NCBI GenBank assembly: GCA_025201705.1
Contig: MU616808.1
Span: 1-40,580, forward strand
From: Dissophora ornata
Lineage: Eukaryota; Mortierellomycota; Mortierellomycetes; Mortierellales; Mortierellaceae
DNA: 40,580 nt
Direction: 5' to 3'
The translations under genes and the position numbers were made by a program. Numbering within the stretch: position 1 is the stretch's first letter; each line of letters begins with the position of its first letter. The notes under the pieces are model-generated. The model saw nothing but the letters and a program-made list of their open reading frames with translations, searched no databases and was not told the DNA's origin. Positions 53 through 36,096 of the stretch are shown here, in pieces.

Positions 53-2289
53 ATGCTTCGCTCGCTCTCCACAACCGCCGCTACCTTTGCCAAGCGTGCC
101 GTCACGCCCGCTATCTCCACCCGCGTCTTCACGGTAAGCATTTACAAAAAATCGATCGCCGCACACTTTTACAAGGATAGCAGCGGTTTTTTTTGTCAAG
201 AACAGGACGGATCGACCAATTCCTCGTGGAACGGAAGCGTGAATACCCCGTCTGTGGATATGGAACCACGGGAGAAGAGGCCCTAGATCAAAACACTGCT
301 GCTGGAAGTGAGACGAAGATCTGGGGAATATACTCCAGGAGGGCTTTTTTCATGGTAGCGATAAGGCGTTTGGTCATGACCGAGCTGACGATGGCTTTTT
401 CCTGTTATTGTTTTAACATTAGCGCGGTATGGCCTTCCCTACTGGTCAGAAGGAGGTAAGAGACAGGAGATATCAGACGGTCGCTTATGCGTTAGAAAAT
501 AAAAGTATAAGCTAACGCCCAACGTCATGCTTTTTTAATAGCTCCTCAACAGGCCCCTGAATGAGCAGGATCCCGAGATGTTTGATATCATTGAGCGCGA
601 GAAGAAGAGACAGCGCGAATCCATTGTCCTGATTGCTTCCGAGGTATGCCGATTTGCATATGACAGCAACTTTTTGTATAACAGGAGCGTGGGACAAATT
701 CCCTAGATCGGATAAAGCGAGTTCCCAGAGTTAACGGTCACTGTAATTCGAATTAGAACTTTACCTCGCGCTCCGTCATGAGTGCTTTGGGATCCGTTCT
801 CCAGAACAAGTACTCGGAGGGCTACCCCGGCGCCAGGTACAGGAGCACTGTCAATGATACAGCCAGAGCGCAAAATGCTTGATCGCATCTTTCAATGGTG
901 GCTGAAATTTCTGTTGCCATGTATATCTCTCTCTCTCGATAACTGATAGATACTATGGTGGTAACGAGAACATTGACATGTCGGAGCGTCTGTGCCAGAA
1001 GCGCGCCCTCGAGGCCTTCAACTTGAGCCCCGAGGAGTGGGGTGTCAATGTTCAGTCCTTGTCCGGTGCCCCCGCCAACCTCTACGTCTATGGTGCCCTC
1101 ATGAAGCCCCACGAGCGTTTGATGGGTCTTGACCTCCCCCATGGTGGACAGTAAGTCGTCGCATCTGGGTCGAAAGTAGTACCGGATGGACATTGAATAT
1201 CCACTGTATCGCAAGATGCTGAAGCTAATTTTCATAATTCACTTTTACTTCAAAAACCGCAGCTTGTCCCACGGATACCAGATCCCCGGCAAGAAGATCT
1301 CGATGGTGTCTGCCTATTTCGAGACCTTCCCCTACGAGATCAACCAGGAGACTGGTGTGATCGACTACGACACCTTGGAGAAGAACTCCAAGCTCTATCG
1401 CCCTAAGATCATCATTGCTGGAGCCTCTGCCTACCCTCGTGAGATCGATTACCCTCGCATGCGCAAGATCGCCGATGGTTGCGGTGCCTATTTGATGGCG
1501 GATATGGCCCATATCTCTGGTTTGGTCGCTGCCAACGTTTTGAAGTCGCCTTTCCCTTACTCTGACATCGTCACCACCACGACCCACAAGTCCCTTCGTG
1601 GACCTCGTGGTGCCTTGATCTTTTACCGCAAGGGCGTCCGTGGCACTGACAAGAAGGGCAAAGAGATCATGTACGACCTTGAGGAGCCCATCAATGCCTC
1701 GGTCTTCCCCGGTCACCAGGGTGGCCCTCACAACCACACAATTGGAGCTTTGGCCGTTGCATTGAAGCAGACCAAGGACAAGACCTACAAGGAATACCAG
1801 GAGCAGGTTTTGAAGAACAGCAAGGCCTTTGCGGACGCATTCAGCAAACTCGGCTACAGCATGTCGTCAGGTGGTACGGATACTCATTTGATTTTGGTCG
1901 ATCTCCGCTCGAAAAATATCGATGGATCCCGTGTGGAGCGTGTTTTGGAGTTGGTGAACATTGCCTCGAACAAGAACACGGTTGCAGGAGACAAGTCTGC
2001 AATGAACCCTGGCGGAATTCGTGTCGGTACTCCTGCCATGACCTCGCGTGGCTTTACCGAGAAGGACTTTGAGCAGGTGGCAGCTTTCATTGACCGGGCT
2101 GTTAACATTACAAAGGATTTGAAGAGCAAGTCGCCCTCGAAGATGATTGCAGGCTTCAAGGAATATGTGGCTGACGGAAGCCATTTCCCAGAGATCCAGG
2201 CGTTGAAGAAGGAGGTTGCAGACTTTTCTAAGCAGTTCCCTACTGCTGGTTTCAGCGAAGATGAGATGCTCCCCCAGTATCGCGACTAA
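53..2289 (+). CDS. Serine hydroxymethyltransferase, mitochondrial type
   Basis: Converts serine and tetrahydrofolate to glycine and 5,10-methylene-THF, using PLP. Exons by hand: 53-133, 542-643, 757-836, 950-1150, 1263-2289; all junctions keep frame and give 496 aa. The first exon (27 aa, [17 protein letters not shown]...) is rich in Arg/Ser/Thr/Ala with no acidic residues, like a mitochondrial presequence. The mature part opens [20 protein letters not shown]. Also visible are the YYGGNE and HGYQIPGKK blocks, [11 protein letters not shown], and the PLP-lysine motif [13 protein letters not shown], with the Schiff-base Lys near residue 264. Length and motifs fit eukaryotic SHMT fully. Intron 1 is long (408 nt); the others are about 110 nt. 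Whether a cytosolic isoform comes from the same locus is not visible: the ATG just upstream of exon 2 (527) runs straight into a stop. Symbol left blank because SHM1/SHM2 orthology cannot be settled here. Confidence 0.96.
134..541 (+). other. Intron 1 of the SHMT gene (408 nt)
   Basis: Starts GTAAGC and ends TTTTTTAATAG. It separates the presequence exon from the conserved enzyme. Its short open frames show no family resemblance. A GCTAAC branch-like site lies near 512. I see no structured RNA in it. Confidence 0.85.
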
Positions 2290-3007: not shown

Positions 3008-4039
3008 ATGGCGCGTTGTTCACTCAAGGAAAACCGCGAGTTGGACCACATCGTCACGAACGACTACATACCGCCACCACCACAAACAGCAGCACCTGCA
3101 GCCCAGTTCATTCAAAACAGCCGTGATGGGACCTATCGTGGAGACCACCTTGACTTGCCTGAATACCGCGGTGGACAGTGGACCAAACAGAGCAGTACTC
3201 AACAAATGCACAACATCGACCTTGACGAGGGACAAGAACACAACCGTTACAGCGACCGAAATAATACACCTAATCGTCAGAATATAATCACGGAAAGGAG
3301 TGGAAGAAGGAGATCGTTGTTATCATCCAGAGAAACGGTGCGCTCTTCTAGCAGTGATAGCACCAAAAATCGCACACCCAGTCAGACCCCATACCAAAAA
3401 AGCGCAACAAGAGTCCGTTCGCAACTCAAGCAACGTTTTCGTTTCCCAGTCTTCAAGCACTATGACCCCTCGCGGTACAAGATGAAAGGCATGGGTCGGC
3501 TGGCGCAATTTAGCAACGAACGTCTGTATTTGCACTGGATTCGGTTCGGGGTCCTTCAGGGCAGTATTGCTGTGATGCTATTGAGCTTTGGAATCGGGAT
3601 TGCGAGTTTCGTAGGGGTGGGGGCCTTGGTGTTGTCGTTGATGACTTTAATCTATGGAACGACAGTATACCATAAGCGGCACCTGTATCTCGTGAAGAAG
3701 AGACAAGATGTGAAATATTTTGCGAGGACGGTGCCAACGCTCTTGACCATGGGATTGTTTGTGCTGTATGGCGCGAACTTTGTCAGTAAGTATTTTTTAT
3801 TGTTGTCAAGTTCTCTTTCGTGCTCGTGTGTTGTGTGCGTCATTTCCATTGTTGATATGTGTGGATTCTCTAGAAAACGCAAGATGTTGTGTTAACCAAT
3901 GGATTGCGTGGATTTCATACATGCTCATGCTCTAACTGCCATTTTTGTACATGTAGTAACACTCTCCTACGGAGAAGATGCAAGGAGTCCTCCGCCATGG
4001 ACTCAACACGACGACAGTAACTTCGACGATTACTTTTAA
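3008..4039 (+). CDS. DUF202 / VTC1-like membrane protein with long N-terminal extension
   Basis: Exons 3008-3785 and 3957-4039 give 286 aa; the split codon A|TA restores Ile, and the tail ends ...NFDDYF. Residues ~165-265 match the DUF202 module of vacuolar transporter chaperones: SNERLYLHWIRFGVLQGS resembles the Vtc1 start, followed by three hydrophobic segments (~178-197, 201-221, 241-262) with a short basic loop between the second and third. Known Vtc1 is the small membrane subunit of the polyphosphate-synthesising VTC complex of the vacuole/ER. Here ~160 residues precede the domain. They are hydrophilic, Ser/Arg/Gln/Asn-rich and probably disordered. No SPX and no VTC catalytic domain is present, so this is not Vtc2-4. 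The ATG at 3008 sits in good context (acccATGGC). It could be an accessory VTC subunit or another DUF202 protein. Confidence 0.8.
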
Positions 4040-4327: not shown

Positions 4328-4949
4328 TTATTCCCACATTTGCTTACCCCGCTTCTTGAGCGTGACTTTCTCATGATGTTTATCTACCCTTTTCACGTCC
4401 TTCTCTGTATTCATCAATCCACGTTCCAGTGTCTTTTCTCGGCGCATCTTGGCCTTTGTGCTGAGGGGCTTCTTTTTGATCGTCTTCTTTGGCTTGTCGC
4501 TAGTATATATACAAGGATTTATCAGAGTCGTCAGCATATGATATAAAACAATAGAAGCTTAATAAAAGTTGGGCGCAATGAACAAATGGCTAGACAGAAA
4601 CTTACACAACAACCTGCTTGCGAAGCTTCGCAAGTTCCAACTCACGAGAAACCTTGTCCTTCATCGATTGAGGTTCTATAGATTTTTTTTTTTTTTTTTT
4701 TTGGTAAGCCCAATTGTTATACCAAAACTAGGTCTGCTCTTCTGTCACTTGTCTCTTTTTTTTTGACGAGTACAATCAAAGCATGTATGTTTTTTTTGTC
4801 TCAACCATCGCTCTGTCATCGCTCGCCACTGCTTACCATCCTCGCCCGGTGCTAGCTTCCGCTTGTTATGTGGCGCATATTTCGACTGGTGAATATCTGC
4901 GATAGAGTGTTTGGTTTGGTTAGGGCAAATGAGCAACACTGTCCGACAT
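4328..4949 (-). CDS. Small basic Alb1-like ribosome-biogenesis protein
   Basis: Proposed exons on the minus strand: 4949-4940, 4896-4837, 4675-4606, 4499-4328; phases agree at every junction and give 103 aa. The protein starts MSDNIHQSKYAPHNKRKLAP and ends ...RGKQMWE. It is very basic and has no transmembrane segment. The pattern of an N-terminal SK..PH..R/K motif, a central KKK(K/P)L(S/T) run, R.R.EK..ER, and a closing K...R...WE resembles fungal Alb1, the Arx1 partner on pre-60S particles. That match is from memory and weak, because the protein is short and Lys-rich. The last three exons are firm (good splice sites, consistent frame). The 10-nt first exon and its 43-nt intron (CCTAACC branch, GTGTTG donor) are less sure. 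The gene lies 3' of the FHA gene in the same orientation. Confidence 0.55.
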
Positions 4950-5112
4950 GAGATTCATGCAAGCCGATGCACCGATTCCAGTTTCTCCATCGAGATCTCC
5001 ATACTTGGTCGTGACTTTCCCATGGCGTCCTGTAGAGTATATGTTTGTGTAGAGGTTGATGAATGATGAGAAAAAAAAAAAAAAAAAGTGCCTTTGGGTT
5101 GACTGGGCGTTG

Positions 5113-5141: not shown

Positions 5142-8100
5142 CTAGCAGTCACCCAGGAAAGTCTGCACCCTCACACGCTTGGGCGAGATCATCAGCACCA
5201 TGTCATCCTCGTCCTCCTCGTCCTCGTCCTCGTCAGCCTCTTGCTCGTAGTTCCGGAACGCAGGAGAAGCTGACCCTAGCCGTTGCTTGAATGACTGTCG
5301 TCTCTTAATCGTAGGCGTTCCCTCCCGCGATCTGCTGAACGTTGACGAAGTCCGCCGCGGGAACATCTTTGGCTGTGGCGACGGTGCTTCGTTATTGAGA
5401 AGAGACTCCATATTACCCTCCATTTCCATTCCTGCATCATCAAGGTCCTCCATTCTGCTCTGCTCAACCTCTTCCTCGACCTCCTCCTCCTCACCAAGTT
5501 CTTGATCTTCATTATCATCTGCAAGGCTGGCACCTTCGCCCAGTAACCGCAAGAGCTCTGCTTGCTCTGCATCCTCTTCATCGTCTACATGTACTGCGTT
5601 CCGATGAGATAGTCCCTCAATTTCATCCATTGGCTCAACCACAGAAGTTTTCCCAGAGCGACTGGTCGTGACATCGGCCACCAAAGTTGACCTTGATGTT
5701 TCCTGGTTAAACTCAATTAGCGAACTGGTCCTCCTCCGCCTGGTTGTTCCATTCAAGTCCTTGGTAAGCTCTCCCTCCTGCCGCTCATCATCCATAGCAT
5801 CGCCATCCTCACGGCTCTGGCTGTGGTTCCTGATGGCGATCGTCCTCTTCTGTGGAAAGATATCTGACCGTCTGCCTCGCGCCTTACTTTCTTCCAATGA
5901 TGACTCCTTTGCAAACGAAAACTCTTTGGCCTTTGGTGACGGCTCACGAGGGTGTCCCATCAATATTGCCATGACGTCCTGATGAGAGGCTATCCGCCGT
6001 TTTGGAGTTGATGCGGGGGAGAGAGTTGTCCTGGGCTTGGTTGGCGTCTTCTGGACGACAGGGGCCTCGCCGTCCAAATTTACGTGATTTGCGCTTTCCT
6101 CTGTTTCCAAACCTTCTTGAACCTCCAGTGTTTCCACTGCGCTTTCTTCTGATGTCTCACTAGATTCGTCAGATCCCGGTATCACTAGGCCCTCCTCTTC
6201 ATCCTCCTCATCGTTCTCGGGAGATTCTTCTGCGCTCTTATCTTCCATAGATTGTTGCCAATATGGCTGCTGAATAGGCGGCTTGGTTGGCGTCATGACA
6301 AAATTACGGAAACCTGTAAACCCCGCAAAACAAGATTCCACCACCTTCTGGGGTGTCCAAAATACGCCACGGAGTCCGGAAAATATGGGGCTTTCGTTGC
6401 GGCCCCTCATGGTCGTTGCTGGCGCACTCGCTCGCCGCTTAGGGTCGACCCTGCTGACCGTCAGCACTGTGTTACGGGGATTTGGCTGTTCACTTTGATC
6501 GACTGCAGAAACATCGTCATCCTCCGCATCTACTTGAGTGTCCTTATGCGCCAAATTACTTTCCTCCGCCTCCTTGACAATGCGTCTCTCAAACCCATTA
6601 TCACCGGACTGACCTAATAACGACAATATCGTCGATGGGCGAGTGGGCGTATTTGACGTCCAGCCTGTGTTCTCGCGATCTTGTGCTGGAGACTCTGGTA
6701 AATGAAGCATGTCCGATAATCCTTTGACCTTTTGAGCCGAGAGCTGCAAAAGCGCAAGTCTGGATGCCGATGCCGGTGCCGGTCGATAAGAGCTTGATTC
6801 TCGCTCCTGGAGATCCCTGGATACTTGACGATGGACAGGAGTATGTACAAGTGATATGTCGATGTTGTTGGTATTACGAGGAGGTGGCGTGGCGAGTGTT
6901 GTGGCTCTTTCTTTTGAGGTTCTCGTGGGTGTTGAAGGTGGAGTTGTATCGTCGTCTAGTATATCATCTAGAAAGGGGCTGGGACCGAGATCATCCACCT
7001 CTTCCCAATAGTTAGCACCACTGCTTCCACCGTTGTTGTCGCTGGAGGCAGTAGCGTCCTCTGCAGTCGCCCTGTTTTCCATGATTTCCTGCATGGCTCC
7101 ATCGTGATCGGCCACGATTGGGACGTCCTGACCCTTGATGGTCCGTCTCTCCTGTGCTGCAAAGATTTCAAGTTGTTCCGGCATAGTCTGCCTGTAAAGC
7201 TTCGCCATCGGGCTCTGCACCTCAGGTAAATCATCCTCAGCGGACTCGTCTGTGCATGCGAGCAGATTGAGCGGCGCAGGTTTTTGTAGATCATGGAAGA
7301 TGGACGTTCGGCCAAGTCTGGATGGCGTTAAGATGGGTTTCGCTGAGGGTCTGATAGAACCTAATTTGGAGAGCAGAGATGGCGTAGAGATACCTCTCCG
7401 TCTTGGTGTTTCTGGACCCTGTTGCTGGCCGCGTTTGACAGGGGTGCTTGGGGGTTCGGCCTTGTCAAAAACCTCTGGACTAAGCGCCGGACCAAACGAA
7501 ACTTTCTTTGGCGTCCTTCCTGTGCCATCATCCTCAAAGTCGATTGGGGCCTTCCGCTTTTCTTTTGTTGGAGTGTACTGTCCTGACTCGTCATATGTCT
7601 TGGATGAAGGCATTGTTACTGAACTGGATGTCGGATTCAGGATAGAGGGTTCATCAATCATTGTGAGAACATTCCTTGCCATAGTTGTGTGTCTGGGAGA
7701 TTTGGCGAGGAATGCGGGAAGGGGAACAGGCTTTGGCGAGACAAGTAGACTAGAGAGTTTTGCTGCTCTGTTAGGCGTGAAGAGCCCCAGTGCTGACTCG
7801 AGAGCGGCAGCGCTCCTGGCGGTGTTTTTTGTTGGCGTTGATAAGCCTCTGCCGACATGTGGCGACGGTATCTCTGCGAGGATCTGAAGATCGTCGTCGA
7901 TTGTTTCTTGTATATAGATGATCTGTCGCGCCGGTGTGTTGCCACTTGTAGATTGCAAGGGTGCGCGAGGAATAGGCTACAGAGGTGTAGCATATGGAAT
8001 CCGGAATTAGCGCCGGTAGTTGCAGCATTGAAGGCCAGCGTTCATTGACATGGGGTCTAGGTAGGATCTTACCACTGAGCTTTCGAATCTAAATTTCCGC

Positions 8101-8865
8101 CCAGCGATTGTCATGATATCATTGTGCTGGATAGGCCGAGCAGTGTCATGGACAAGGACGTTATTCAGCAGCGTTCCGTTCGTCGACGTGTCCTTGAGCC
8201 AGACCTATGTGCATGTGATTGGAAATCGGCGTCGTTATTCGTATTGGTTTTCATCTTTCCCGTGCGTACGCACGGGACAGTTGCCCTCGTGCAATCCAAT
8301 GTTTACTTGTCCTAATTACCTCGCCATCGTCTCTTCGGATGAGTTTACAGTGCATCTCCGAGACTGCGTCAATCTGGACTCGAATGTCATTCGAGTCGCT
8401 CCTGCCAAAAGAACAATATGACTTGTCGATAGGATAACGGTAGTAGACGCTTTCGTCGTGCTTCTTGAGTCCCACAATATGGCCCCAAACGCCTGTCTTG
8501 AGGATAGTCTTTTTCCTTGGTGTCGTTGGTAGCACAGGTCTCTTCGGTGTGCTCGTGCCTCTACTACTTGATGTGCTGGTGCTGCTGCTGCTGCTGTATA
8601 TTGCGCTGAGTCTCGCTGACTTTCGTGAGGGGCTGTTCTCCAGTGGTGATGCCTCCTCTACCAAGGTTTGTATGTCTGTGCTTATTGGTCGGGGGGAAAG
8701 GAATGGATTTACCATTGAAGAGGTAGATGCAGAGTCCACATGATGTCTGGAGAGAGTGTCTCCGGATGTAGTTGCATTGCTGTGAAGGGATTTGATGGGT
8801 GCTCCAAAAGGGGACGCCTGGAGAGCACTTTTCCGCAAAAGCCTCCTCTTTGGCGTGTCTGACAT
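5142..8865 (-). CDS. FHA-domain protein with Ki-67/RepoMan-type PP1-docking motif
   Basis: Exons 8865-8320, 8204-8073, 7976-5142 (all phase 0) give 1,170 aa. An FHA domain spans ~128-222, encoded by exons 1-2. It carries the expected FGR (153-155), the VSEMHC segment (Ser169, His172), TNGTLLNN with the core NG (191-192), and ITIAGRKFRFE-like closing strands (MTIAGRKFRFE). FHA domains bind phosphothreonine peptides. At ~382-409 is KKVSFG, then SPEVFDK and PPSTPVKRG. This is an RVxF PP1-binding motif followed by the second docking block known from animal Ki-67 and RepoMan. The rest is long, disordered, Ser/Thr-Pro rich and acidic near the C-terminus, with basic clusters suggesting a nuclear location. 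Inference: a mitotic-chromatin PP1 scaffold regulated by CDK-type sites. No leucine/arginine-rich chromatin-binding tail was recognised. The C-terminus may differ if the downstream exon at 5029-4925 is used. Confidence 0.88.
7428..7505 (-). other. Ki-67/RepoMan-like PP1-binding motif
   Basis: Encodes residues ~384-409 of the FHA protein. It opens with KVSF (RVxF class), then G-P-A-L, then SPEVFDKAEPPSTPVKRG. In animal Ki-67 and RepoMan, an RVSF is followed at nearly the same spacing by a P-E-L/V-F-D...LPPNTPLKRG segment that contacts PP1-gamma. The order, spacing and invariant FD, PP, TP, KRG residues match. The phosphorylatable Ser in V-S-F and the TP site are also kept. Confidence 0.82.
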
Positions 8866-9167: not shown

Positions 9168-12100
9168 TTACAAAGATATGGACAAAGACACTCCGCTTGC
9201 GAACACCATCAAAAACACAAACAACGCCGCAACCTGGACCTGCATCGACTTCAGCTGCTCAACAAATAACTCTATCGCCGTCTGCCACACTTCCTCGTAG
9301 TCTCGTAGATGATCCATCTCCATCGTTGAGGCGCTCTTCCTCGGAGCCTCCATCTTCTCAAACACCACAGTTTCAGCTGCAAACTCGCTGTGACTGACAT
9401 TCTTGTCCAACTTCTCCGCTGCTGTTTCCTCGTATAGCTCTGACTGAGCCTCAACAAACTCTGCTTCATCACTCTCATACTCTTGCTCATCCTGAACCTC
9501 TACGGTTCCAAAACACGCCACTTCGCCAACGACCTGCATAACTTCAACTGCTGTTGACGCGGCGACCTCCTTCACGACTCCGTTATCGTCCTTTGAGATG
9601 TCATCGACTTTCAGGCCCTGCAGATCAGAAAGTGGGCTGGTTGCTGACGAGATCGACCTCTTCCGGTTCTTTCTGATGCGAGTGGGCGGGGAACGGTTCT
9701 CAGAATTATCGACTACATCCGGAGAGAATGTTACGCGACGCGATCCACTGGTCGAGTCGGTAGAGTTGGTGTGTTTGAGGTCGCTAGAAGGCTCCAGTAT
9801 GTCCGTGGGGTTCGTTTGCGCTGGAAGAGGCGACGCCAATGGCGAATTCATGGATGCCAGCGAGCAATCCACATCTTGAGGCTCTGTCTTTGTCGCCTTG
9901 GTCAGGATAGCATTAATGTCGGCGTTTTCCAGTTGTGCCAAAGCGAAAGCGATGGTATCAGGTAAGGGCGAGATTACTGCTGCTGTTGAGGCAAATGTTC
10001 CAATTACAGGACCAGACTCGGGAGAGAGGGGGCACGGCGAAATTTCACCCGCTGGCTGTAAGATAGAAGATTCTGTTGAACAACTGTCAAACAAGCTGGC
10101 TGAAATGGCCTCCTGCGGTAGAACTGCCTCGAGATCTGCTTTGATTTCCGGTGAGAGGCCGATAGTTAAGGGTTTGTTGAAAAGTGGGGCCACAGGTTCG
10201 ATTGGCATGTGTGGAATGTGGAATGGGCCGAGTGTGGGACTGCACATAGGCGAAAGTGTCCGTGTCGTTTCCGGAGAGGCAATCATTGTTGCGTTGGGGT
10301 CAGTTAAAGAGTCTCTTGTACGGGTGTTGTCATTTGGGGATGCCATGGAAGATGTGCTGAAGGGAAGTGGTGGCGCATCTCCTTGAGAAAGATATGGTGA
10401 AATGGGAATAGAGTGTCGGCCAAGGGAGCTAGAACGACGGGGGAGTGAAGGAGCGGGGGCGCCTCCGGGCGCGCTCACTAGGTTGTGCGGAGTACGACTT
10501 CTAGAGCGGCTCCTCTCGGACTCCTGCGAGGCCATGGATGCCGTTGGGGCCTGTGGTGGTACATCGGGTCGTTCAGAAGAAGAGGCAACAACGAGATTAG
10601 GGTCAAAGGCACTCAAAGTTGTGTAGCTGGCGCTTCTCCTCTTACGACTGATGGACGACGGCGCACCATTCCGTCGTAGGTCGGATCCGCCACCAGCGTC
10701 CGCAGAGGAACCATCATATACCTGCTCAGTGATTTGATTCTGATCATTACTCTTTAGATGGCTCGACGACTTTCGTGGGGACGGACCGCCATACGTCGGA
10801 GTAGCCATCTCGAAGGCTCTGCTGTCTCTTGGGGGTTGCGGTAACAACGAATCCTGCTTGCGTCGGCGTGGCTTATCGTCCTCGTCCTCGTTGTCATCTA
10901 GCTTGAACTGAAACGGGTTCTGCTTGGCAACGTCGCCTGCGTTCAGACCCTTCCTAGTCACTTGGGCGACAATACTCTGGCCCTCGTGATCCAGTGTCGT
11001 AAAAATACGGACGCCTCCGAAATCCGGAGCAAGTTCGACGCGCACAGATGGGTCGTCTGGCTTGATGAAAACGTCGTAGCCTTCCCTATAGACCTTTCGG
11101 CCGACTCTGATCTCGGTCCATCCTGGCGCTGCCTTGAAGCACAGCTCAAAGTGGCCAGTCTTGGGATCGAACGTGTCGAAAAGTCGGTTTCCAGCGATAT
11201 GGGAAGCATAGGGCGGGTATCCTGTCTTGTTCATAAAATGATTCAGGCGAGGGACGGCGGTCATCATGCTGGCAGAGATTGATTTGACAACCGAGTTTGG
11301 TAGCGTTCCTCGGATGTCGATCTGGATCACATACGTGACGTTGACAGAGACGGTATTGCCTTGGCCATCAAAGATCGGCCTTAATGACCAACCCGAAAGC
11401 TCCAGGAGTGCGCGAATGCGGCCTGGGTCTTCAGGGATGGTTGTGTCGAGAACGGAGGTGGAAACGTTGTACAATGCTGATGTTTGGGGATCCCGGTCGA
11501 TGATCGTAACTCCAGCCAAGTCTCGACCACTATATCGAAAAAAGAGATTATAGAATTCATTGAATATCTTGTTGTTTGTGGCCTTAAATGACCAGAAACG
11601 ATAATACAGCATATAAACTTACGTTAGAGAGCCTATACCCTTGAGGGTGATATGGAAGAGATACTCGTTTGAGTTGAAGGTCTCAGCGATAGACATGTTC
11701 TCGAAACGCTCATCCCAGGCTTGACGACAGCCTGAGGACTCAATGACGGCGTTGATCTGCTCAACAGACCAACCGCCAGTAATGACTCCTTCTCCTCGAA
11801 GCATGGGGAGACCTGCTCCAGAAATAATCCTGCTGTAGCTCTTAAAGGTACCATCACTCGATACTGTCCTCCAGCGGTCCTCAGGACTTGAAGCAAGTAC
11901 CTTGAACATGGCCAAGGCCTTGCGGGCTGTCTCAGAGTGACGATGTGGGAGAGCTAGGGATGACGCAAGCTGTGTCGACGAACGATTGGAATCCACGCTG
12001 GTAGCGGTCGAGTTTCTCTTCATCGCGTTTGAGAGCGCACCATAAGAAGACATCCTAGTCAAGCCATGGAGGGTTACGTTGGTGTTGTTGCGGAGGGGTA

Positions 12101-14024
12101 TGACATGGCTGTGGCGCGGTGCGAACGAAGCACTTCGGCCGATCAAAGTACTATGACGGCGAGCCTCCATGATATCAGATGGTGAACGCATGCCATATGC
12201 AGCAAAAGCCATCGAGCTTGGCCGTGAAGTCAGTGCGGTGTCGACAGGCACATGGTGTTTTGGTGTTCGTGGGATAGTCTTAATCCTGGATGTTACAGAC
12301 GCATCTGAGTCAGACGCGGCGTCTTTGCCGTCTATAGAGGTTGTTGGCGTCAGAGGAGGAGTCGCTGGTGTCACGACATGTGGCGGTGTCGGTCGCTCTG
12401 CTGACATGGGCAGAGTGTTTCTTTGAGAGGAGGTTGATCTAGCTGTCTGTGCCAATTGTCCTGACCCCGAAGATAATGTCCTCGAGCTCTGTGGCGGTAA
12501 TAGTGGCCGGGCACGCTCCTGAGCAAGAAGTGGCGTCTGGACTGGTTGTGGGGAGTGCGACCGAGATCCGTTGTTGGACGTGACAGACATCTCGTCGTGA
12601 TGTCGCATAATTCCGCCCTTTCCGAACAACTGGGAATCCCCGAAGAGCGCCGTGTCCCCAAGGCGGGCGTTGTTTTCCAAGAATTCTGGCGTGAAGATGG
12701 AGGGGGCAAGTGCTCGGTTTGACGCGAGACTGGGCGCCAACGAGTTCCGTGATGTCCTGTCTATTGAGCTCTCGTTGTACCCGTCCATGGTGAACTGAAA
12801 CTCCTCATCGCCTGAATCATCCCTGTCGTTCAGCTGCTCCGCTTCCATTTCCGAGTCGATTGGGCCAAGGGGCGAGAGGAATGCTGATCCAGACAGGACA
12901 ACATCCTCGTTGTCTGGCTCAGGAAAGAGGAACTTCTCAGGCTTGAGTGGCTCGCTGAGACTCCTGTGGCGGTGAGTTGTTTGTGAGACGAGATTGGACA
13001 TGACCATCGGTACTCCGTTCTTCCTGAGATGGGTTTCGATGGTGGTGATGACTAGGGGTCGTTTTGCAAGGGACCTCCTGGCAATGAACTTTGGCAGTCT
13101 ATTCAACAGGTCGGTTTGGATGATGTAGGTGATCTTGGTGATGGGCGGATTGGAGGGAAGAGGCTGGATGATCCATCCAGCGATAAAGATGTCAGCCCTG
13201 ACTTTGCCTGATATCCGTGGAATTTTGCTCGAATCTACAGAGCATGAAGCAAAGTATATTGTCCCGTCGCGTTCCATCTCGATCCTCTCCACCATGGATA
13301 TATCCCGCGTTCTAGTTCGGTAGAACAGATGTGTTAGGATATGCGTCTATTGTAACCGTGCATGACATGCATCAACGATAACGATATCCAGATACGTTAC
13401 TTTGAGGAAAGGTTGCTTTTCATAACCATGTACATCAGTTTCGTCGCGTCATCGTAGGACTCCACATAGCTGAGCTCATCATACCAATCACTTGAAACCA
13501 AAAAAAGAACAGTCAAAACATAGTTAATATTTTGAAGAACAAAGAAAATCTCCGTTGATTGAAATTTATCCGGGATTTGTCAATACTTACTCCCAGAGTT
13601 TCCGCACGCCTACTACGGTGAACACATCCTGTGCGCGGTATCCGCGGATAACATGTTCGCCCTTGAAGGTCGGCTGCTTGTCGCCATTGCCTGTGGACTG
13701 GTAGACAAGACATCCTGATTTGTGCTTCAGAACCTTCTTCCATCCGGTTGGTTTCGAAGCTGCTTTAAGGAGCTTTATTGCCTGGATTGCTTGCTCGATG
13801 TGATATTCCTTTGTTCGCTTCAGTGGGTCGGGTGCGTAAAGGTGAGATTGAGGGCCTCTCTCTGCAGAGTCGGATTCGTCCCCACTTTGGCTATCGAGCG
13901 TCTGCGATAGTTGCGTTTGGCTGATGTTTTGGATGCTCCTGTGGCTAAAGTTGCGGTGGTGCTGCTCGACCCACTCCAGATTCTCCTCCCCATTGACCAT
14001 CTCTGATCGATGTGTTCCCTTCAT
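9168..14024 (-). CDS. Tail-anchored protein with two START lipid-binding domains
   Basis: Exons 14024-13591, 13490-13401, 13311-11623, 11529-9168 give 1,524 aa with consistent phases. START-1 (~75-285): GWKKVLKHKSGCLVY, then FKGEHVIRGYRAQDVFTVV, WDDWYDEL, and a typical strand/helix C-half (AGWIIQPLP...ITYIIQTDL.NRLPKFI). START-2 (~640-870): DRWRTVSSDGTFKSYSR, LRGEGVI, WDERFENM, then GWSLRPIF and YVIQIDIRGTLPNSVV. A further beta-rich segment (~880-970, ending VRIFTTLDHEGQSIVAQVTR) follows. After ~500 disordered Ser/Pro residues, the protein ends with one hydrophobic segment (~1503-1522, VAALFVFLMVFASGVSL) two or three residues from the C-terminus, so it is probably a tail anchor. START domains bind lipids such as sterols or phospholipids; a membrane-contact-site lipid-transfer role is inference. 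Ligand cannot be told. Confidence 0.88.
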
Positions 14025-19000: not shown

Positions 19001-22000
19001 TGATCTCGAGCTTGAACGATCCAGCTGGCGTGGCTCATTTCCTCAAGACGAGCACGCGCTTGAGCAAAAGTCTATTGGGCGAATACCTCGCCAAACCTTC
19101 CAATTCTGAGGTCCTCAAAGCTTTCATCCAGCTCTTTGATTTCCACGGGGTAAGTTATTGGCCCAATACTTTGGATTTGCGCTCCAAAATCCACCATTCT
19201 GTGTGCTAACAATTTGCACGCTCGCACCCAGAAACGTCTCGATGAGTCCTTGCGCGAGCTCCTAGAGACATTCCGTTTGCCTGGTGAATCACAGCAGATC
19301 GAACGCATTATGGAGCTTTTTGCAGAGACCTACTTTGCCACCCAGCCAAGGGCTATCGCCTCACAGGACGCTGCATTCATTCTCGGCTACGCTGTTGTCA
19401 TGTTGAATACAGATCAGCATAATCGAGTAGTCACGGGACGCATGTCGCTCGAACAGTTCAGCAAGAATCTGAGAGGAGTCAACAACGGAGAAAACTTTGC
19501 TATTGAGTACTTGGCAGAGATTTATGATGCTATCCGAAAGCGCGAGATTGTGCTGCCTCAGGAGCACGAGGGTCAACTTGGATTCAACTACGCATGGAAG
19601 GAACTTTTGCGCCGGGCCGAGACCGCAGGACCTCTTGTCGTCTCGAACACTTCCATGTACGACAAGGAACTTTTCGTGTCCTCTTGGAAACCCGTCATGT
19701 CTGCCATCTCTTATGGTGAGTGGAGCTTGGCTGGAGCGCGATTGCTTGTTATGGGATTTATCCCAATACACGGCTCATAGCTCATATTCATTTTATGTCT
19801 GTATAGCTTTCAATATGGCGCAGGATGATGCAACATTGCAAAAGTCATTGACGGGCTATTACCAGTGTGCTATGATAGCCGCTCAATACCAACTGCCCGA
19901 AATTTTTGACCGTGTAACAATGTCATTGGCAAGGATGACTGGACTGTTGGACACTCCCAACAACCCCGCTGACAACCGCGACGTCGTTGTGGACGGCACG
20001 ACGATCACAGTCAGCGATCTGGCTGTTCAGTTTGGAAAGAGCTATAAGGGTCAGTTGGCTGCGGTGGTAGCGTTTGGAGTGGCGAATGAGCATGGCAACA
20101 TGATTCGGTCTGGATGGAAGCCTATCTTGGAGATTATCAAGAATTTGTTTGTTAATAATCTCCTCCCCGGTTCCATGTTGGAGGTCGAGGACTTTTTGTC
20201 AGGAACAACCATGATCCTTCTAAAGGCACCCGTCGTACCCGAAGTAAAGGATAAGGTTCGACAGGATAGTTCGTTGCTGTCGACTCTTTCCTCATACTTG
20301 CTCTCATCCTCATATTCGTATGAGACTGCACGCGAGGAGCCAACGCCGGAGGAAATCGAATCGACGCGCTGCACTGCCGACTGTGTTGCGGCGTGCCGAT
20401 TGGAGGAGCTGTTCACGGACATTCGACTGCTGGAGGACCTCCCATTGACGCAGTTGATGGAGGCTATAAAGTTTGTGGCAGACGGAAACTCGGTTACCAA
20501 GCCAACAAAACCACCCACTCCCTCCAAACTGTACAACCCAGCCAGCGTGTTCTTGTTGGAGCTTATGATCAGCTTGACTGTTCAGAACCGATACCGCGTC
20601 CAAGCACTCTGGCCCATTGTTTTTGAGCATTTGAGCGACATTATTCGCGAGGCTGGATCTCAGAGCGTGTTGCTCGTGGAGCGCGCGGTGGTGGGTCTGC
20701 TGAGACTCTGTATTCGTCTGGCACACAATGACGACATGTCAAAGGAGGTCTTGGATGCTCTGGACCTTTTGCTCGGTCTTCCTATCGATGTCGTCCCCGA
20801 GGTAGCAGAGCAAATGATGGCCGGTGTGTTGACCTTGTTAAAGGCCGACACCTCGTGCGTTCGACCCAACTTGAACTGGGATGTCCTCTTTGCGCTCTTG
20901 TCTTCAACCTCGAACCACCCGGAAGCTGCAAAGTATTCATTTGAGGCTATTAGCATGTTTGTCGCTGAGAACGATGGAGAGAACGTGAGCGTCGAGAACT
21001 ATGCCGACTGCGTGGATTTGCTGATTCGCTTTGCAGCTGCAGGAGCTGTCGGCGCTGAAGGCGCCATGAAGCAAGAGAGCGGTCAGCGTGGAAGTAAGAG
21101 CCACATGTCGAAGGCACAGGCCAGTGCAGTTGAGCGTGCCAAGAAGGCTGTCGAGATGCTTTACCGTCTTCACAGCCAAGCGCCTCGGCTGATCTCGCAG
21201 TCCAAGATGAACCCTGAATTGACGTGGTCTGCGTACTGGTTCCCGATCCTGGTGGGCTTGACGCAGCAGTGCTCCAACCCCTGTCGCGAAGTACGCAATC
21301 ACGCCATGATCTACCTTCAGAGAGCGCTGCTCTTGCCAGAAATTGTGACAGACAAGATCACAGAATGGGTGGTTGTGTTTGATAAGGTCTTGTTCAAGTT
21401 GTTGGAGGATCTGTTGAGGCCCGAGATTGTCCAGCAGGATCCTGCAGGCTTTGAGGAGACTAGGAGCAAAGCCTGCGCGATTGTGTGCAAGACGTTTTTG
21501 CATTATTACTTCCGTCTCTTGGAGTGGGAGGGACTGCAGGCTCTGTGGATGAATGTGCTGGATTATATGGATGCCTTTATGCAGACTGCACAGAGCGACC
21601 AATTGGTAAGCGCTGTTCTTTGATACTAACACGTTTACTCATTGCGGTAAAATTTACAACGCTAATGCTTTACCATCGACCTCTTTGTTTTTTGCTGATT
21701 AGTATGAGGCCGTGCCAGAGTCCCTCAAGAACTGTCTGCTAGTCATGTCTACTTCAGAGGCCTTTTCTGAAGCGTCAGCCAGCAGCCCGGACAGCCTCTG
21801 GAATGTGACCTGGAATAGGATCAACAAGTTCTTGCCCAACCTCAAAGCCGAGATCTTCCCACCCCACGCCTCAGAAGGTGGATCGTCATATGCAGCATTG
21901 ATGATGGGTGTAGGCAAGAACTTGTTCTCTGTTGTCGGAGCAAGTGAGTCCACGCCTGTGTCCACGCCAGCACCTGATACACCAGTGCCAGCAAGCGCAA

Positions 22001-32058: not shown

Positions 32059-35000
32059 ATGAGCTCCAGCAGACGAAACTCAAAGCAGATCTCGCCGGAG
32101 GACGACTCGAACATGCAGGTAAGACACACTGGCATCCGCCCTCCCTAGCCCCCCCTCCCCCGTCCCCATTCCCGCTACAATATCAAACTAGGAAGAAGCT
32201 TGTTTCCCGCCACGAACGCGAAAAATAAAGAGAGGAACGTGTTTTGTAGGGGGGAAGGGTGCCCAAGCACTATTCAGGGTAATTGCGCCTCCCTGCCTAC
32301 GCAACGTAGAAAAGGAAGCGTAGTAGAGGAATGGAAAGGGAGCGGATGAAGGGCGCAAATGGAATGGAAGAAAGGAAGGAAAGAAAGATCAAGATCAGAT
32401 CAAGCATTGTGAGCTCGCACGAAAGCATCTCTGCACGTTATGATCAGATGGTTCGGGAACGCGTTATGCCTCACGCTCTGCATTGCTTCCCTCTTTCAGC
32501 TGCATGGCGCTTGAGAAACACAGAAAGAAAGAAAGAAGAAAGGAAAAAAAAAAAAACTCACACTCTCCCGTCTGTATATAACCGACTACTAGGCTGTCAA
32601 GGGTCCCGAACCTCCCAGGCTCAAGTTGAAGCTGAGGCAGCCTGAACAGACAGGGCTACCTGAAAGTGGTGCGTGGGGTTTTTTCATGCTCGAATAGGCT
32701 CGTTCGTTCGACGGCTTACCGCCTTTGTTTTCGCCAAAACCCTGACATGTGTTTATGGTGTCATATCGTTAGATGTGAAAAAGATGTTCCTTGCTGTCGA
32801 GGAGAACGACACCAAGACGATGAAGCAGTACCTGACCCAAAAGAATATTGACCCAGACACGCTCTTCGAGACCAACGTCTTTGAGGACAACGCCTTTACC
32901 TGGTCAGCGCTGCATGCGGCAGCCTACTACGGATCGAAGCAGATCGTCAACCAACTTCTGGAGCACGGCGCGAATGTGGAACTGGAGGATACCTGGTACC
33001 AAGGTCGGCCTCTCGCCTGGGCTGCATTCGGAGGCAAGCATACATTTTACCCAGATGTCATTGCCTTGTCCTTGTTTGATTAATGGGAATAAGTCGCTGG
33101 TCTTAACGCAGTGAGTTTTCACAATATCTGATCAATAGGCCATCTGGATGTTGCAAAGCTGTTAATCGAGAAATACGGAGCTGATAAGAAGGCGAAAAAC
33201 GAGCATGGTCAAGTTGCGTTGGATCTCGTCTATGAATTAACGCCAGAGTGGGAAAGCCTGTTTGGAGAGGTAATTACTTCCGTCGACCCGTTTCCAACAC
33301 TATTTATTTCACGAGTATAGAATGAACTCACATGCTGACGCTTTTCCTCCCCACTCTGTATCTCCTTTATTCGATTCTTTTATTGTTTACTGATCGACTC
33401 AGCAAAATGGATCAAAGGCATCTAGGCCCTCAAAGATGAAAAGGAGTGGAGACGACCATGGCAAAATGCATCCAAAGGATAGCAAGCAGACAAAGGAGGG
33501 CAAGAACACTGTGACCATCCCAGGGAGTCCACTAATCGGCGCCTTTACCGAGCTCTACAAACTCGTCTTGAACCACAAGGACAAAACGTAATGATCGTTT
33601 TTAGTTTATATTTTTTTTCTCGGAGTGCATCCCTCTACATGTGGACAACAAAATTTACACCTTTTTCTTGGCCTGAATATGGTAGTGGACGGGAACTTGC
33701 GGATATCTTCTTGGCGCTTCCGTCCAAGGAAGAGTACCCAGAGTACTATGAGGTCATCAAGTCACCCATGTCGCTCCAGCTCGTACTTGTAAGTTGTACA
33801 TAAAACAGCTGTGATAGAAGGGATTAGTAGGGCAAGAGATCAAGATGAATAACGAAGCATTGCATTTTGCATGTATTTATTTTCGTAGTCGAGGATAAAA
33901 TCGGGACACTACAAGACCGTGGACGACTTTGACAGGGAATTTCAACTCATTTTTGAAAACGCACTCATCTTCAACGAGGATGGGTCGCGGATCAACAAGG
34001 ACGCAAGGGTCTTGTTGAAGCTATTCAACACCCGGAAGAAAGATATTTACGCTTCCTATAAACTCGTTCAGAACCCGAAGGCTGCGGCAGCAGACAAGGT
34101 TAGTGACCTTGGTGGTTTGATCTTTTCGTTTACAGCTTTGTGTTTAATCATGTTTCAAAATAATTAATGCTTTCTTTGGGAATGAACGTTGAAAATAGGC
34201 CGACAGACAAAAGGTGCCATCACATACTAAGGGTGGCGTTACCTATCAAGTGGGGGAGTTTGTGCAACTGAGCGATCCTGCCAGGACTATTATTCTTATT
34301 GAGCGACTAGAGGTGGATTCAAAGTAAGGCAAAGCTTCGTCTCTATGGCTCATAATAATTAGCGATTACACTCTCAGCACTGACATCCTCGACATCCTTC
34401 GTTTTGTGCACCATAGGAAGAACAGGTTCATTGCAGGATCAAAGTTCCTTCGACCGGAGCAAATTCTCCAGGTTCCAGGACAGATGTTCTATGAGAAGGA
34501 GGTGCTCAAAACCTCAGGAGAATGGGAGTTCGATTTTGCATTGGTCGACCACAAAGTGTACGTCCAGGCGCACAAGGACTATGTTCGTGGCCTCGCCTTC
34601 ATCTTTGATCCCAAGGATGTATATGTTTGCGAGAATCGATACTCTGAGACTGGAAAGTCGGCATTTTTGATCAAGGACTGGAAGAGGGTGTACACGATCG
34701 ATCCTCTGCCAACGCAAGTTCGCCCTTACCCCACAGCGCTCAAGCTTCCAAAGTTCCCGGTTAAAAGCACCGTTACGGCCGACTCGACTGTAGACACCGT
34801 CGGTCAGTTCAACGGCAGAAGGTCATCCTCAACAGTTCATCATGATTCAGCAAAGAGGAGTAAACGACCCCGGCCGTCGACGAGACCCAAACCCGCGAAG
34901 CGCAAGAGCCAGAGCAATGGCAACAGCGACGACGATGAGGATGAGGATGATGAAGACGAAGAAGAGGAGGTTGATGTCGATGGAGTGACCTCACCAGACC

Positions 35001-36096
35001 CGCAAAGACGTCGCTCCAGTCATATGCAACGGCAGCAAGTTCAACAAGCGCAGCACCAACAACAGCAGCACCAGCAACAACAGCTACAACAACAGCAGCA
35101 GCAACAACAATTCCAGGCACCCCATATGCAGCAACAACAAGCACATCATCTCCAGCAGCAGCAATACATTCAGCAACAGCAACAACAACAGCAGCAGCAG
35201 CGGTCGCGTCGAGTCTCGAACCAGAACCAGATGAACAATGCCAATGTCATGCTTCAACAGCAACAGCAACAGCAACATCAGCAACAGCAGCTCCTACTGC
35301 AGCAGCAGCAACATCTCTTCCAGCAGCAGCAGGCGATCCAATATCAGCAGATGCATCCCCACCTTCAGCATCCTCTGCAGTCACTACCCTTGTCCCAGAG
35401 CCCAAGTAGTTCACAGTCGATGGGTTCGCCCGGATCACCCGGTCGGATTCAAATGCAGATGCCAATGGCGGCACCAATGACGGCGCCAATGACGGCACCA
35501 ATGATGGACCCAAGGGCAGGAATGATGATGCAGATGGGTTCACCACAGGTTTTTATTCCAGCAGACGTATCTCTAGTATATGATCCCAATGTCGGACCAA
35601 GAAAAGGTACCAGTCTTGTTGCTTTTTCTGATTGATCTTGCCCGCATCGAAGATCCCCTGCTGACGTATGTTGTCAATGTTTGGCAACTTGGAACTAGGT
35701 TACGCTATGCTTCAGTCCATTACATTGGATGCAGAGGACAAATCTTTCATGATGAGTTTGAGTACCGAGACGTTCGCACACAGTGTTGCGGTTCATCACC
35801 AGGTTTCGAGCATCACGGTGACTCCGATGTTGGCACCACAGCTGGCGCCTATCCAACCGCAGGTCGGTGTATCTCTTTTCCAGAATGGAAGAAAGTTAGT
35901 GCCAACTGGAGTATTGCCCCAACCAGGGCCGCCGATGATGGGACACCCTATCTTTACGATCCCGTTGGTGCCTGGACAGAACACGATCGACGTGTGGATC
36001 AGTGCTCAGGTCGGAGGTCTATTCCAGGGCGGTGTACCAGGTGGCAAGACGGAGACCCAGCAGTTCTACTTGTTTGTTCAGCGTAATAGCGTTTAA
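32059..36096 (+). CDS. Ankyrin-bromodomain-BAH protein, RSC/polybromo-like
   Basis: Ten exons: 32059-32118, 32593-32668, 32773-33033, 33139-33269, 33403-33587, 33686-33788, 33889-34098, 34199-34323, 34417-35606, 35699-36096; 912 aa, phases agree. Ankyrin repeats occupy ~46-170 (SALHAAAYYGSKQIVNQLLE, PLAWAAFGGHLDVAKLLIEK). A single bromodomain lies at ~213-330, with YPEYYEVIKSPMSL and NALIFNEDGS carrying the acetyl-lysine-binding Asn. A BAH domain (~350-500) has VGEFVQLSD, WEFDFALVDHKVYVQAHKDY and YVCENRY. A basic/acidic linker, polyglutamine, Met-Pro repeats and a C-terminal beta-rich segment (ITVTPMLAP...NTIDVWIS) follow. Bromodomain plus BAH is typical of Rsc1/Rsc2 and polybromo in SWI/SNF-type remodellers, so a chromatin role is likely. 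Intron 3 uses a GC-AG donor. Intron 1 is 474 nt. Confidence 0.9.
32119..32592 (+). other. Intron 1 of the ankyrin-bromodomain gene (474 nt)
   Basis: GTAAGA donor to TACTAG acceptor. Contains purine-rich AGAAAGAAAG tracts and no coding signal. The 20-residue first exon (MSSSRRNSKQISPEDDSNMQ) is supported mainly by its start, donor and phase 0. Confidence 0.65.
35028..35350 (+). repeat. CAR-rich polyglutamine tract
   Basis: In-frame CAG/CAA runs coding long Gln stretches with interspersed His, inside the ankyrin-bromodomain gene. The CAG/CAA mixture makes it less slippage-prone than a pure repeat. Leu-rich antisense frames here are its shadow. Confidence 0.95.

What the first reader, a model, noticed from the sequence alone, without database searches (positions are those of the whole stretch)
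5142..8865. Fungal protein with Ki-67-like plan: N-terminal FHA plus RVxF/KiR-type PP1-docking motif
Seen: an N-terminal FHA domain, then KVSFG and the SPEVFD...PPSTPVKRG block at the animal spacing, then a long disordered S/T-P-rich body. Known: in animals Ki-67 combines an FHA with this exact docking module, and RepoMan has the module without FHA; they recruit PP1-gamma to mitotic chromosomes. From memory Ki-67 is treated as an animal (mainly vertebrate) protein, so an early-diverging fungal counterpart would push this PP1 scaffold back to before the fungus-animal split. Inference: mitotic exit or chromosome-periphery function.
Basis: partly seen in the sequence, partly recalled or inferred. 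Interest (0 to 1): 0.82.

Follow-up and report, generated by a model that had tools for sequence, protein, structure and literature searches.

The report
Fungal Ki-67/bridgin-like phosphatase-docking protein
A soil fungus carries a relative of the animal cell-division marker Ki-67 that keeps the phosphatase-docking stretch almost unchanged but ends in an acidic tail where the animal protein has a basic one; fungal relatives of Ki-67 were already published, so what is new is the mix of parts.

Summary
Window 8865-5142 (minus, three exons) encodes 1170 aa, identical to a public Dissophora ornata protein (Mortierellomycota). FHA: Pfam E 2.8e-13; closest PDB sequence human Ki-67, E 1.9e-12, next family CHFR 1.5e-5. 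Docking block 381-412: PP1_bind E 1.2e-8, gapless to the RepoMan and Ki-67 peptides solved with PP1, present in 36 of 36 Mortierella-type proteins. Three PP1-type genes of the genome keep the pocket residues.

The novelty claim is largely overtaken: bridgin (2021) is a published fungal Ki-67-like FHA protein with an 'unconventional' docking site. What remains is a mirror-image variant: Mortierella-type proteins keep the animal-type block but end acidic (pI over 9 in 0 of 32), with a basic N-terminal extension; basidiomycete-type ones end basic (56 of 61) but lack the block. The bridgin survey screened for a basic C-terminus. A Ki-67-repeat-like motif is suggestive only.

Most likely a mitotic-exit PP1 scaffold gated by CDK and Aurora; binding and localisation are untested.

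The parts
8320..8865 (-). Exon 1, residues 1-182: basic N-terminal extension and first part of the FHA domain
   Evidence: Open frame with GT donor at 8319, phase 0; spliced protein identical to public P0001
8512..8865 (-). Basic extension before the FHA, residues 1-118
   Evidence: pI 11.21, net +9; stretch before the FHA basic in 15 of 15 aligned proteins with more than 30 residues there, pI 9.95-11.59; 4 of 19 annotations lack it
8320..8511 (-). FHA domain, part in exon 1 (residues 119-182)
   Evidence: PF00498 152-215, E 2.8e-13; closest PDB sequence Ki-67 FHA
8073..8204 (-). Exon 2, residues 183-226: rest of the FHA domain
   Evidence: AG acceptor ending at 8205, GTAAG donor at 8072; frame kept
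5142..7976 (-). Exon 3, residues 227-1170 and TAG stop: S/T-P-rich body
   Evidence: Open frame; 40 [ST]P pairs against 18.4 expected
7698..7823 (-). Conserved island of unknown role, residues 278-319 (LFTPNRAAKLSSLLVSPKPVPLPAFL)
   Evidence: Mean column identity 0.88 in 19 aligned proteins
7419..7514 (-). PP1-docking block, residues 381-412: RVxF-type KVSF, EV pair, KiR-type FD...PPSTPVKRG
   Evidence: PF15276 E 1.2e-8; gapless match to 5inb, 5j28, 5ioh; in 36 of 36 Mortierella-type proteins
7497..7499 (-). S386, the x of RVxF, counterpart of the Aurora B sites Ki-67 S507 / RepoMan T394
   Evidence: S in 36 of 36; Aurora B control of the animal sites in eLife 16539
7443..7445 (-). T404 (TPVK), counterpart of the RepoMan CDK1 site T412
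   Evidence: TP in 36 of 36; RepoMan CDK1 sites in eLife 16539
6690..6728 (-). Ki-67-repeat-core-like motif 1, residues 643-655 (VKGLSDMLHLPES)
   Evidence: 12.0 bits with an animal-trained matrix; suggestive only
6345..6383 (-). Ki-67-repeat-core-like motif 2, residues 758-770 (FSGLRGVFWTPQK)
   Evidence: 8.4 bits; in conserved island 757-784; suggestive only
6282..6320 (-). Ki-67-repeat-core-like motif 3, residues 779-791 (FTGFRNFVMTPTK)
   Evidence: 7.4 bits; suggestive only
5145..6017 (-). Acidic C-terminal region, residues 880-1170, where Ki-67 and bridgin have a basic tail
   Evidence: pI 4.65; last 290 aa with pI over 9 in 0 of 32 Mortierella-type, 56 of 61 basidiomycete-type and 6 of 6 animal proteins

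Best explanation
This is the Mortierellomycota version of an FHA/PP1 scaffold whose other versions are animal Ki-67 and fungal bridgin. Shown by sequence: a Ki-67-type FHA domain and a complete RVxF plus KiR-type PP1-docking block in one long, mostly low-complexity protein, in a genome whose PP1 enzymes keep the matching pocket. Inferred: in early mitosis CDK1 (T381, T404) and Aurora (S386) phosphorylate the block and keep PP1 off; at anaphase these marks fall, PP1 docks, and the FHA, bound to a phosphothreonine partner on chromosomes or kinetochores, delivers it to substrates there. The basic C-terminal tail is missing, so tethering would rest on the FHA and perhaps on the basic N-terminal extension.
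For: FHA: of 23 PDB sequences matched at E up to 1 the best are Ki-67 (1r21 1.9e-12, 2aff 2.1e-12), next CHFR 1.5e-5. A bird Ki-67 FHA finds this gene first in the genome, E 3.1e-6 against 1.7e-3 for the next of 4 matches. An HMM of 6 animal Ki-67 FHAs gives 19 of 19 Mortierella-type FHAs 50.6-65.7 bits, 18 of 18 basidiomycete ones 23.9-42.0, and 4 of 4 other FHAs of this genome 22.2 or less. Docking block; 36 of 36; profile match to the block of 6 animal and 2 unnamed proteins 99.2% probability, 68% identity over 31 columns. Phosphosites: T381, S386 and T404 in 36 of 36, S392 in 22 of 36, S386, S392 and T404 matching published Aurora B and CDK1 sites. PP1: 3 of 3 PP1-type genes (L011, L012, L013) have the Arg20 equivalent (read across an inferred splice junction) and R74, E77, Y78, F81, Q294 (pocket residues from eLife 16539). 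FHA residues R155, S169 and H172 in 19 of 19.
Against: No binding, localisation or phosphorylation data. The FHA tree did not resolve the family: 4 other FHAs of the genome fell among the fungal groups, and the constrained trees were neither favoured nor rejected (p-AU 0.22, 0.28, 0.35). The HMM separation is clean only with the animal profile: with the Mortierella profile one other FHA (L004, 25.3 bits) beats 5 of 18 basidiomycete ones, and with the basidiomycete profile another (L002, 24.1) beats 3 of 6 animal ones. The KiR part departs from the published general motif FDxxLP(P/A)N(T/S)PL(R/K)(R/K)G at both L positions (E, V here) and has S for N. FHA residue N191 is replaced in 6 of 19. Missing Ki-67 features: basic tail, CD motif, Pfam repeat. 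AlphaFold2 gave a poor model (mean pLDDT 36.3; blocks of 32-67 over the FHA), which neither supports nor refutes the fold.
Confidence: 0.72

Rival explanations
1. It works as a bridgin: a kinetochore linker recruited by the outer kinetochore that contacts centromeric chromatin, with PP1 docking secondary.
For: Bridgin is the only fungal relative with experiments: it is at kinetochores from G2 to M, peaks in anaphase, and PP1 was listed in its immunoprecipitates. Basidiomycete-type FHAs score 23.9-42.0 bits with the animal Ki-67 profile. The long acidic middle resembles bridgin's.
Against: Bridgin's chromatin contact needs its basic C-terminal domain; here pI over 9 in 0 of 32. In basidiomycetes bridgin goes with loss of other linkers, whereas this genome has matches over the cut-off to CENP-C_C (2 of 2), CENP-T_C (4 of 8; histone folds can cross-match) and Ndc80.
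Confidence: 0.3
2. The docking block, or the whole gene, reached Mortierellaceae from an animal by horizontal transfer instead of descent from the fungus-animal ancestor.
For: The block is 68% identical to the animal-type one and, among named fungi in three capped searches, was found only in Mortierellaceae.
Against: The gene has introns splitting the FHA, is spread through many Mortierellaceae genera, its FHA is only about 31% identical to the animal profile (hhalign), and basidiomycetes have an FHA relative of their own. Search sensitivity is limited, so absence elsewhere is not shown.
Confidence: 0.08
3. The basic tail is not lost: it is supplied by splicing into the neighbouring downstream gene, so the working isoform is Ki-67-like after all.
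For: 4 of 19 aligned annotations (P0005, P0014, P0018, P0026) continue into a lysine-rich tail. In the window a donor-like GGTGAC at 5152 would join in frame to the downstream exon at 4896.
Against: The other 15 of 19 annotations do not continue; several end alike at SPKRVRV..FLGDC. The downstream stretch has its own ATG at 5023. Even the four fused models have last-290 pI of 5.36-6.59.
Confidence: 0.07
4. Chance: an unrelated FHA protein with a fortuitous RVxF-like stretch.
For: Short motifs arise easily in long disordered proteins; FHA domains are common (15 matches in this genome).
Against: PP1_bind E 1.2e-8, only match found in the genome, 36 of 36 conserved, reciprocal Ki-67 best match.
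Confidence: 0.01

Closest known systems
Animal Ki-67 (MKI67)
   Same: FHA closest among PDB sequences; RVxF plus KiR docking block, gapless to 5j28; S/T-P-rich body; repeat-core-like motifs, suggestive
   Different: No basic C-terminal tail, no CD motif, no Pfam Ki-67 repeat; basic extension before the FHA; 1170 aa against 1198-2570 aa in the six animal proteins fetched
Bridgin (Bgi1, Cryptococcus) and its basidiomycete relatives
   Same: FHA followed by a long unstructured acidic body; a putative PP1 site after the FHA
   Different: Canonical block here; basidiomycete-type proteins have a degenerate LRLSMIQSAQVFTPRPS stretch that does not align with it (0.4% probability) and a basic C-terminus in 56 of 61. 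Bgi1 itself was not fetched.
RepoMan (CDCA2)
   Same: Docking block; 5inb is the best PDB match; CDK1 and Aurora B sites at matching places
   Different: RepoMan's only homology to Ki-67 is this block (eLife 16539), so it has no Ki-67-type FHA

Membership tests
Ki-67 (MKI67) | N-terminal FHA domain of Ki-67 type | tested here: met
   it lies after about 118 extra residues; the tree is unresolved
Ki-67 (MKI67) | RVxF plus KiR PP1-docking block | tested here: met
   PF15276 E 1.2e-8; gapless to 5j28; 36 of 36
Ki-67 (MKI67) | Tandem Ki-67 repeats (PF08065) | tested here: not met
   No match at E up to 1; also none in the Schistosoma, Artemia and crab proteins, so the Pfam model may be vertebrate-biased
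Ki-67 (MKI67) | Ki-67-repeat core motif | tested here: inconclusive
   Family level 1 of 1000 permuted matrices, but this protein's 27.9 is near the best control, 25.1, and with a vertebrate-only matrix below it, 29.1 against 29.9
Ki-67 (MKI67) | CD motif (TGHAxSPA) | tested here: not met
   HMM from 4 animal proteins finds only those 4 of 106 proteins above the inclusion threshold; the two Schistosoma proteins lack it too
Ki-67 (MKI67) | Basic LR-type C-terminus | tested here: not met
   pI 4.65; 0 of 32 relatives over 9, animals 6 of 6
Ki-67 (MKI67) | Perichromosomal localisation and PP1 recruitment at anaphase | not testable with these tools
   Needs experiments
Bridgin | Amino-terminal FHA and unstructured middle | tested here: met
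   disorder judged from composition only, the AlphaFold2 model was poor
Bridgin | Basic C-terminus (screening criterion of the bridgin survey) | tested here: not met
   criterion read
Bridgin | Kinetochore recruitment by the KMN network | not testable with these tools
   Needs experiments
Bridgin | Repeats of the 'bridgin consensus motif' | not tested
   The motif is in supplementary files that were not available
RepoMan (CDCA2) | Docking block without an FHA | tested here: not met
   An FHA is present

The most novel reading that the evidence does not exclude
The common ancestor of fungi and animals already had one FHA scaffold with a KiR-type PP1 dock and Ki-67-repeat-like motifs. Its two functions then came apart: Mortierellomycota kept the phosphatase dock and gave up the basic chromatin tail (moving basic charge to the N-terminus), while basidiomycete bridgins kept the tail and let the dock decay. 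PP1 delivery at mitotic exit, not chromosome coating, would be an original and separable function of Ki-67.
Probability: 0.42. Interest if true: 0.65.

Novelty: new variant of a known kind. Interest (0 to 1): 0.5.

Why it matters
The KiR docking motif was described as used only by Ki-67 and RepoMan (eLife 16539), and the published fungal relative has only an 'unconventional' site. A fungal clade with a near-animal block supports an origin before fungi and animals split, and offers a natural protein in which PP1 docking occurs without the basic chromatin-binding tail. That makes testable which part of Ki-67 does what at mitotic exit.

Tried and rejected
Ki-67 as animal-only: rejected. FHA phylogeny to settle orthology: unresolved; used 6 of the 7 longest other FHA loci of the genome, L003 left out because it was read in the wrong frame by my script. 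In one search I read four minus-strand loci on the wrong strand; corrected. In one search I missed the third PP1 gene for the same reason; corrected.

Ki-67-repeat homology: a loose pattern written after seeing the sequences hits 35 of 37 Mortierella-type, 33 of 61 basidiomycete-type and 6 of 6 animal proteins, against 0.02-0.04 per shuffled protein. A stricter animal-trained matrix passes the 99% shuffle level in only 3 of 37 and 20 of 61. A softened matrix on the top three sites gives 1 of 1000 column permutations for 7 of the 37 and 0 of 1000 for 11 of the 61, but real control pieces from this window reach 25.1 (this protein 27.9), and with a vertebrate-only matrix 29.9 (this protein 29.1). 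Kept as suggestive. In basidiomycetes the copies look like a short tandem array, judged by eye.

Basidiomycete degenerate site as a shifted form of the block: pattern found in 58 of 61, but profile alignment to the canonical block fails (0.4%); strict [RK]V[ST]F in 1 of 61, inside its FHA. Full-length AlphaFold2 model: too poor for a fold search, so none was run. Pfam on the downstream tail: no family.

Limits: the three protein searches are word-based and capped; absence in Mucorales, chytrids or Glomeromycotina is not shown. One search's FHA search listed 15 matches but not this gene, whose FHA is split by an intron. A1 used 19 of the 37 Mortierella-type proteins, A3 18 of the 61 basidiomycete-type. 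P0035 (a START gene model fused to this gene's N-terminal half) was left out of the docking count of 36.
Full report
1. Gene. D. ornata is in Mortierellomycota.

2. FHA. Pfam FHA 152-215, E 2.8e-13. Closest PDB sequences are the two human Ki-67 FHA entries, 1.9e-12 and 2.1e-12; next CHFR at 1.5e-5. In reverse, a bird Ki-67 FHA finds this gene first in the assembly, 3.1e-6 against 1.7e-3. A profile of 6 animal Ki-67 FHAs ranks 19 of 19 Mortierella-type FHAs (50.6-65.7 bits) above 18 of 18 basidiomycete-type (23.9-42.0) and 4 of 4 other FHAs of the genome (22.2 or less). The separation is less clean with the two fungal profiles, and the tree is unresolved. R155, S169 and H172 are kept in 19 of 19, N191 in 13 of 19.

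3. PP1 dock. PP1_bind E 1.2e-8, the only match found in the genome. The block aligns gaplessly with the RepoMan and Ki-67 peptides crystallised with PP1. It is present in 36 of 36 Mortierella-type proteins, this one included and P0035 left out, with T381, P382, K383-P389, L391, P393, E394, F396, P401, P402, T404, P405, R408 and G409 invariant. It matches the block of 6 animal and 2 unnamed proteins at 99.2% probability and 68% identity over 31 columns. S386 corresponds to Aurora B sites Ki-67 S507 and RepoMan T394, S392 and T404 to RepoMan CDK1 sites S400 and T412. T381-P-K-K beside the RVxF is an extra CDK-type site (consensus recalled).

4. The receptor. The KiR-SLiM paper ascribes isoform choice to PP1 Arg20, with R74, Y78 and Q294 in contact and E77 and F81 holding Arg20. 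PF16891 finds four loci. Three are PP1-type and keep all six residues, Arg20 read across an inferred splice junction; the fourth looks Ppz-type (name recalled).

5. What is missing or moved. The last 290 residues have pI over 9 in 6 of 6 animal and 56 of 61 basidiomycete-type proteins but 0 of 32 Mortierella-type ones. The stretch before the FHA is basic in 15 of 15 aligned proteins that have it. The CD motif is absent from the fungal proteins and from two Schistosoma proteins, and PF08065 is absent here and in four invertebrate proteins. Conversely the 61 basidiomycete-type proteins carry no PP1_bind in the listing, and their stretch at that place does not align with the canonical block.

6. 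Repeat-like motifs. Three sites (643-655, 758-770, 779-791) resemble the core of animal Ki-67 repeats. Family-level tests favour it, stricter tests and real controls are weak for this protein. Suggestive only.

7. Prior knowledge. Bridgin (PMC7794384, passages) is an FHA protein of Cryptococcus with an unconventional PP1 site, an acidic middle and a basic C-terminus; Ki-67 is called its metazoan homologue. Its survey screened hits for a basic C-terminus, which these proteins lack. A later review (PMC9252888, passages) says bridgin occurs in other fungal phyla without naming Mortierella. Neither main text contains 'Mortierella'; their supplements were not seen. In a search pairing Ki-67 with Mortierella none of the 15 listed papers of 17 contained 'Mortierella'. 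Other searches. eLife 16539 was read as abstract, passages and one part of nine; PMC8354752, PMC8786303 and PMC4841783 as passages.

8. Verdict. A real, conserved homologue of Ki-67/bridgin with a canonical PP1 dock, most likely a mitotic-exit PP1 scaffold. It fails tested defining features of both strict Ki-67 and strict bridgin, so it is filed as a variant of the wider FHA/PP1 family, not as a member of either.

Noticed in passing
window 4331-5023, minus: A small lysine-rich gene starts 118 bases after this gene's stop (MGKSRP......KKRGKQMWE). In 4 of 19 aligned relatives it is annotated as a fused C-terminal tail; no Pfam family for the equivalent tail of P0018.
   Followed up: partly
window 9168-13295, minus: Two START-domain frames lie just upstream on the same strand. 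In Dissophora globulifera P0035 carries a START domain together with a match to this gene's N-terminal half, probably a gene-model fusion; P0031 is the rest.
   Followed up: partly
P0046-P0106, e.g. P0073, P0095, P0103: Basidiomycete-type FHA proteins carry a short array of TP..xGVRELF-type units about 20 residues apart, reminiscent of the short repeats of bird Ki-67 (by eye). Might be the published bridgin consensus motif.
   Followed up: partly
P0044 and P0045: Two unnamed proteins with a PP1_bind block, no FHA match, and an array of basic units like LRKTKRSLPTPLR: a RepoMan-like plan in an unidentified organism.
   Followed up: no
P0019-P0032 range, FHA residue 191: FHA residue N191 is V, I or D in 6 of 19 aligned proteins, mostly Linnemannia, suggesting altered phosphopeptide binding there.
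   Followed up: no
G000 (own genome): Matches over cut-off to CENP-C_C (2), CENP-T_C (4 of 8) and Ndc80 (2), so a bridgin-like protein coexists with other linker candidates here.
   Followed up: partly
L011, L012, L013: Three PP1-type catalytic genes and one Ppz-like gene in this genome.
   Followed up: partly
window 1186-2289 +, 3008-3895 +, 19497-21623 +, 34406-35635 +: Other genes: SHMT, DUF202, GBF1-like repeats, and a weak below-cut-off BAH match in a glutamine-rich frame.
   Followed up: no
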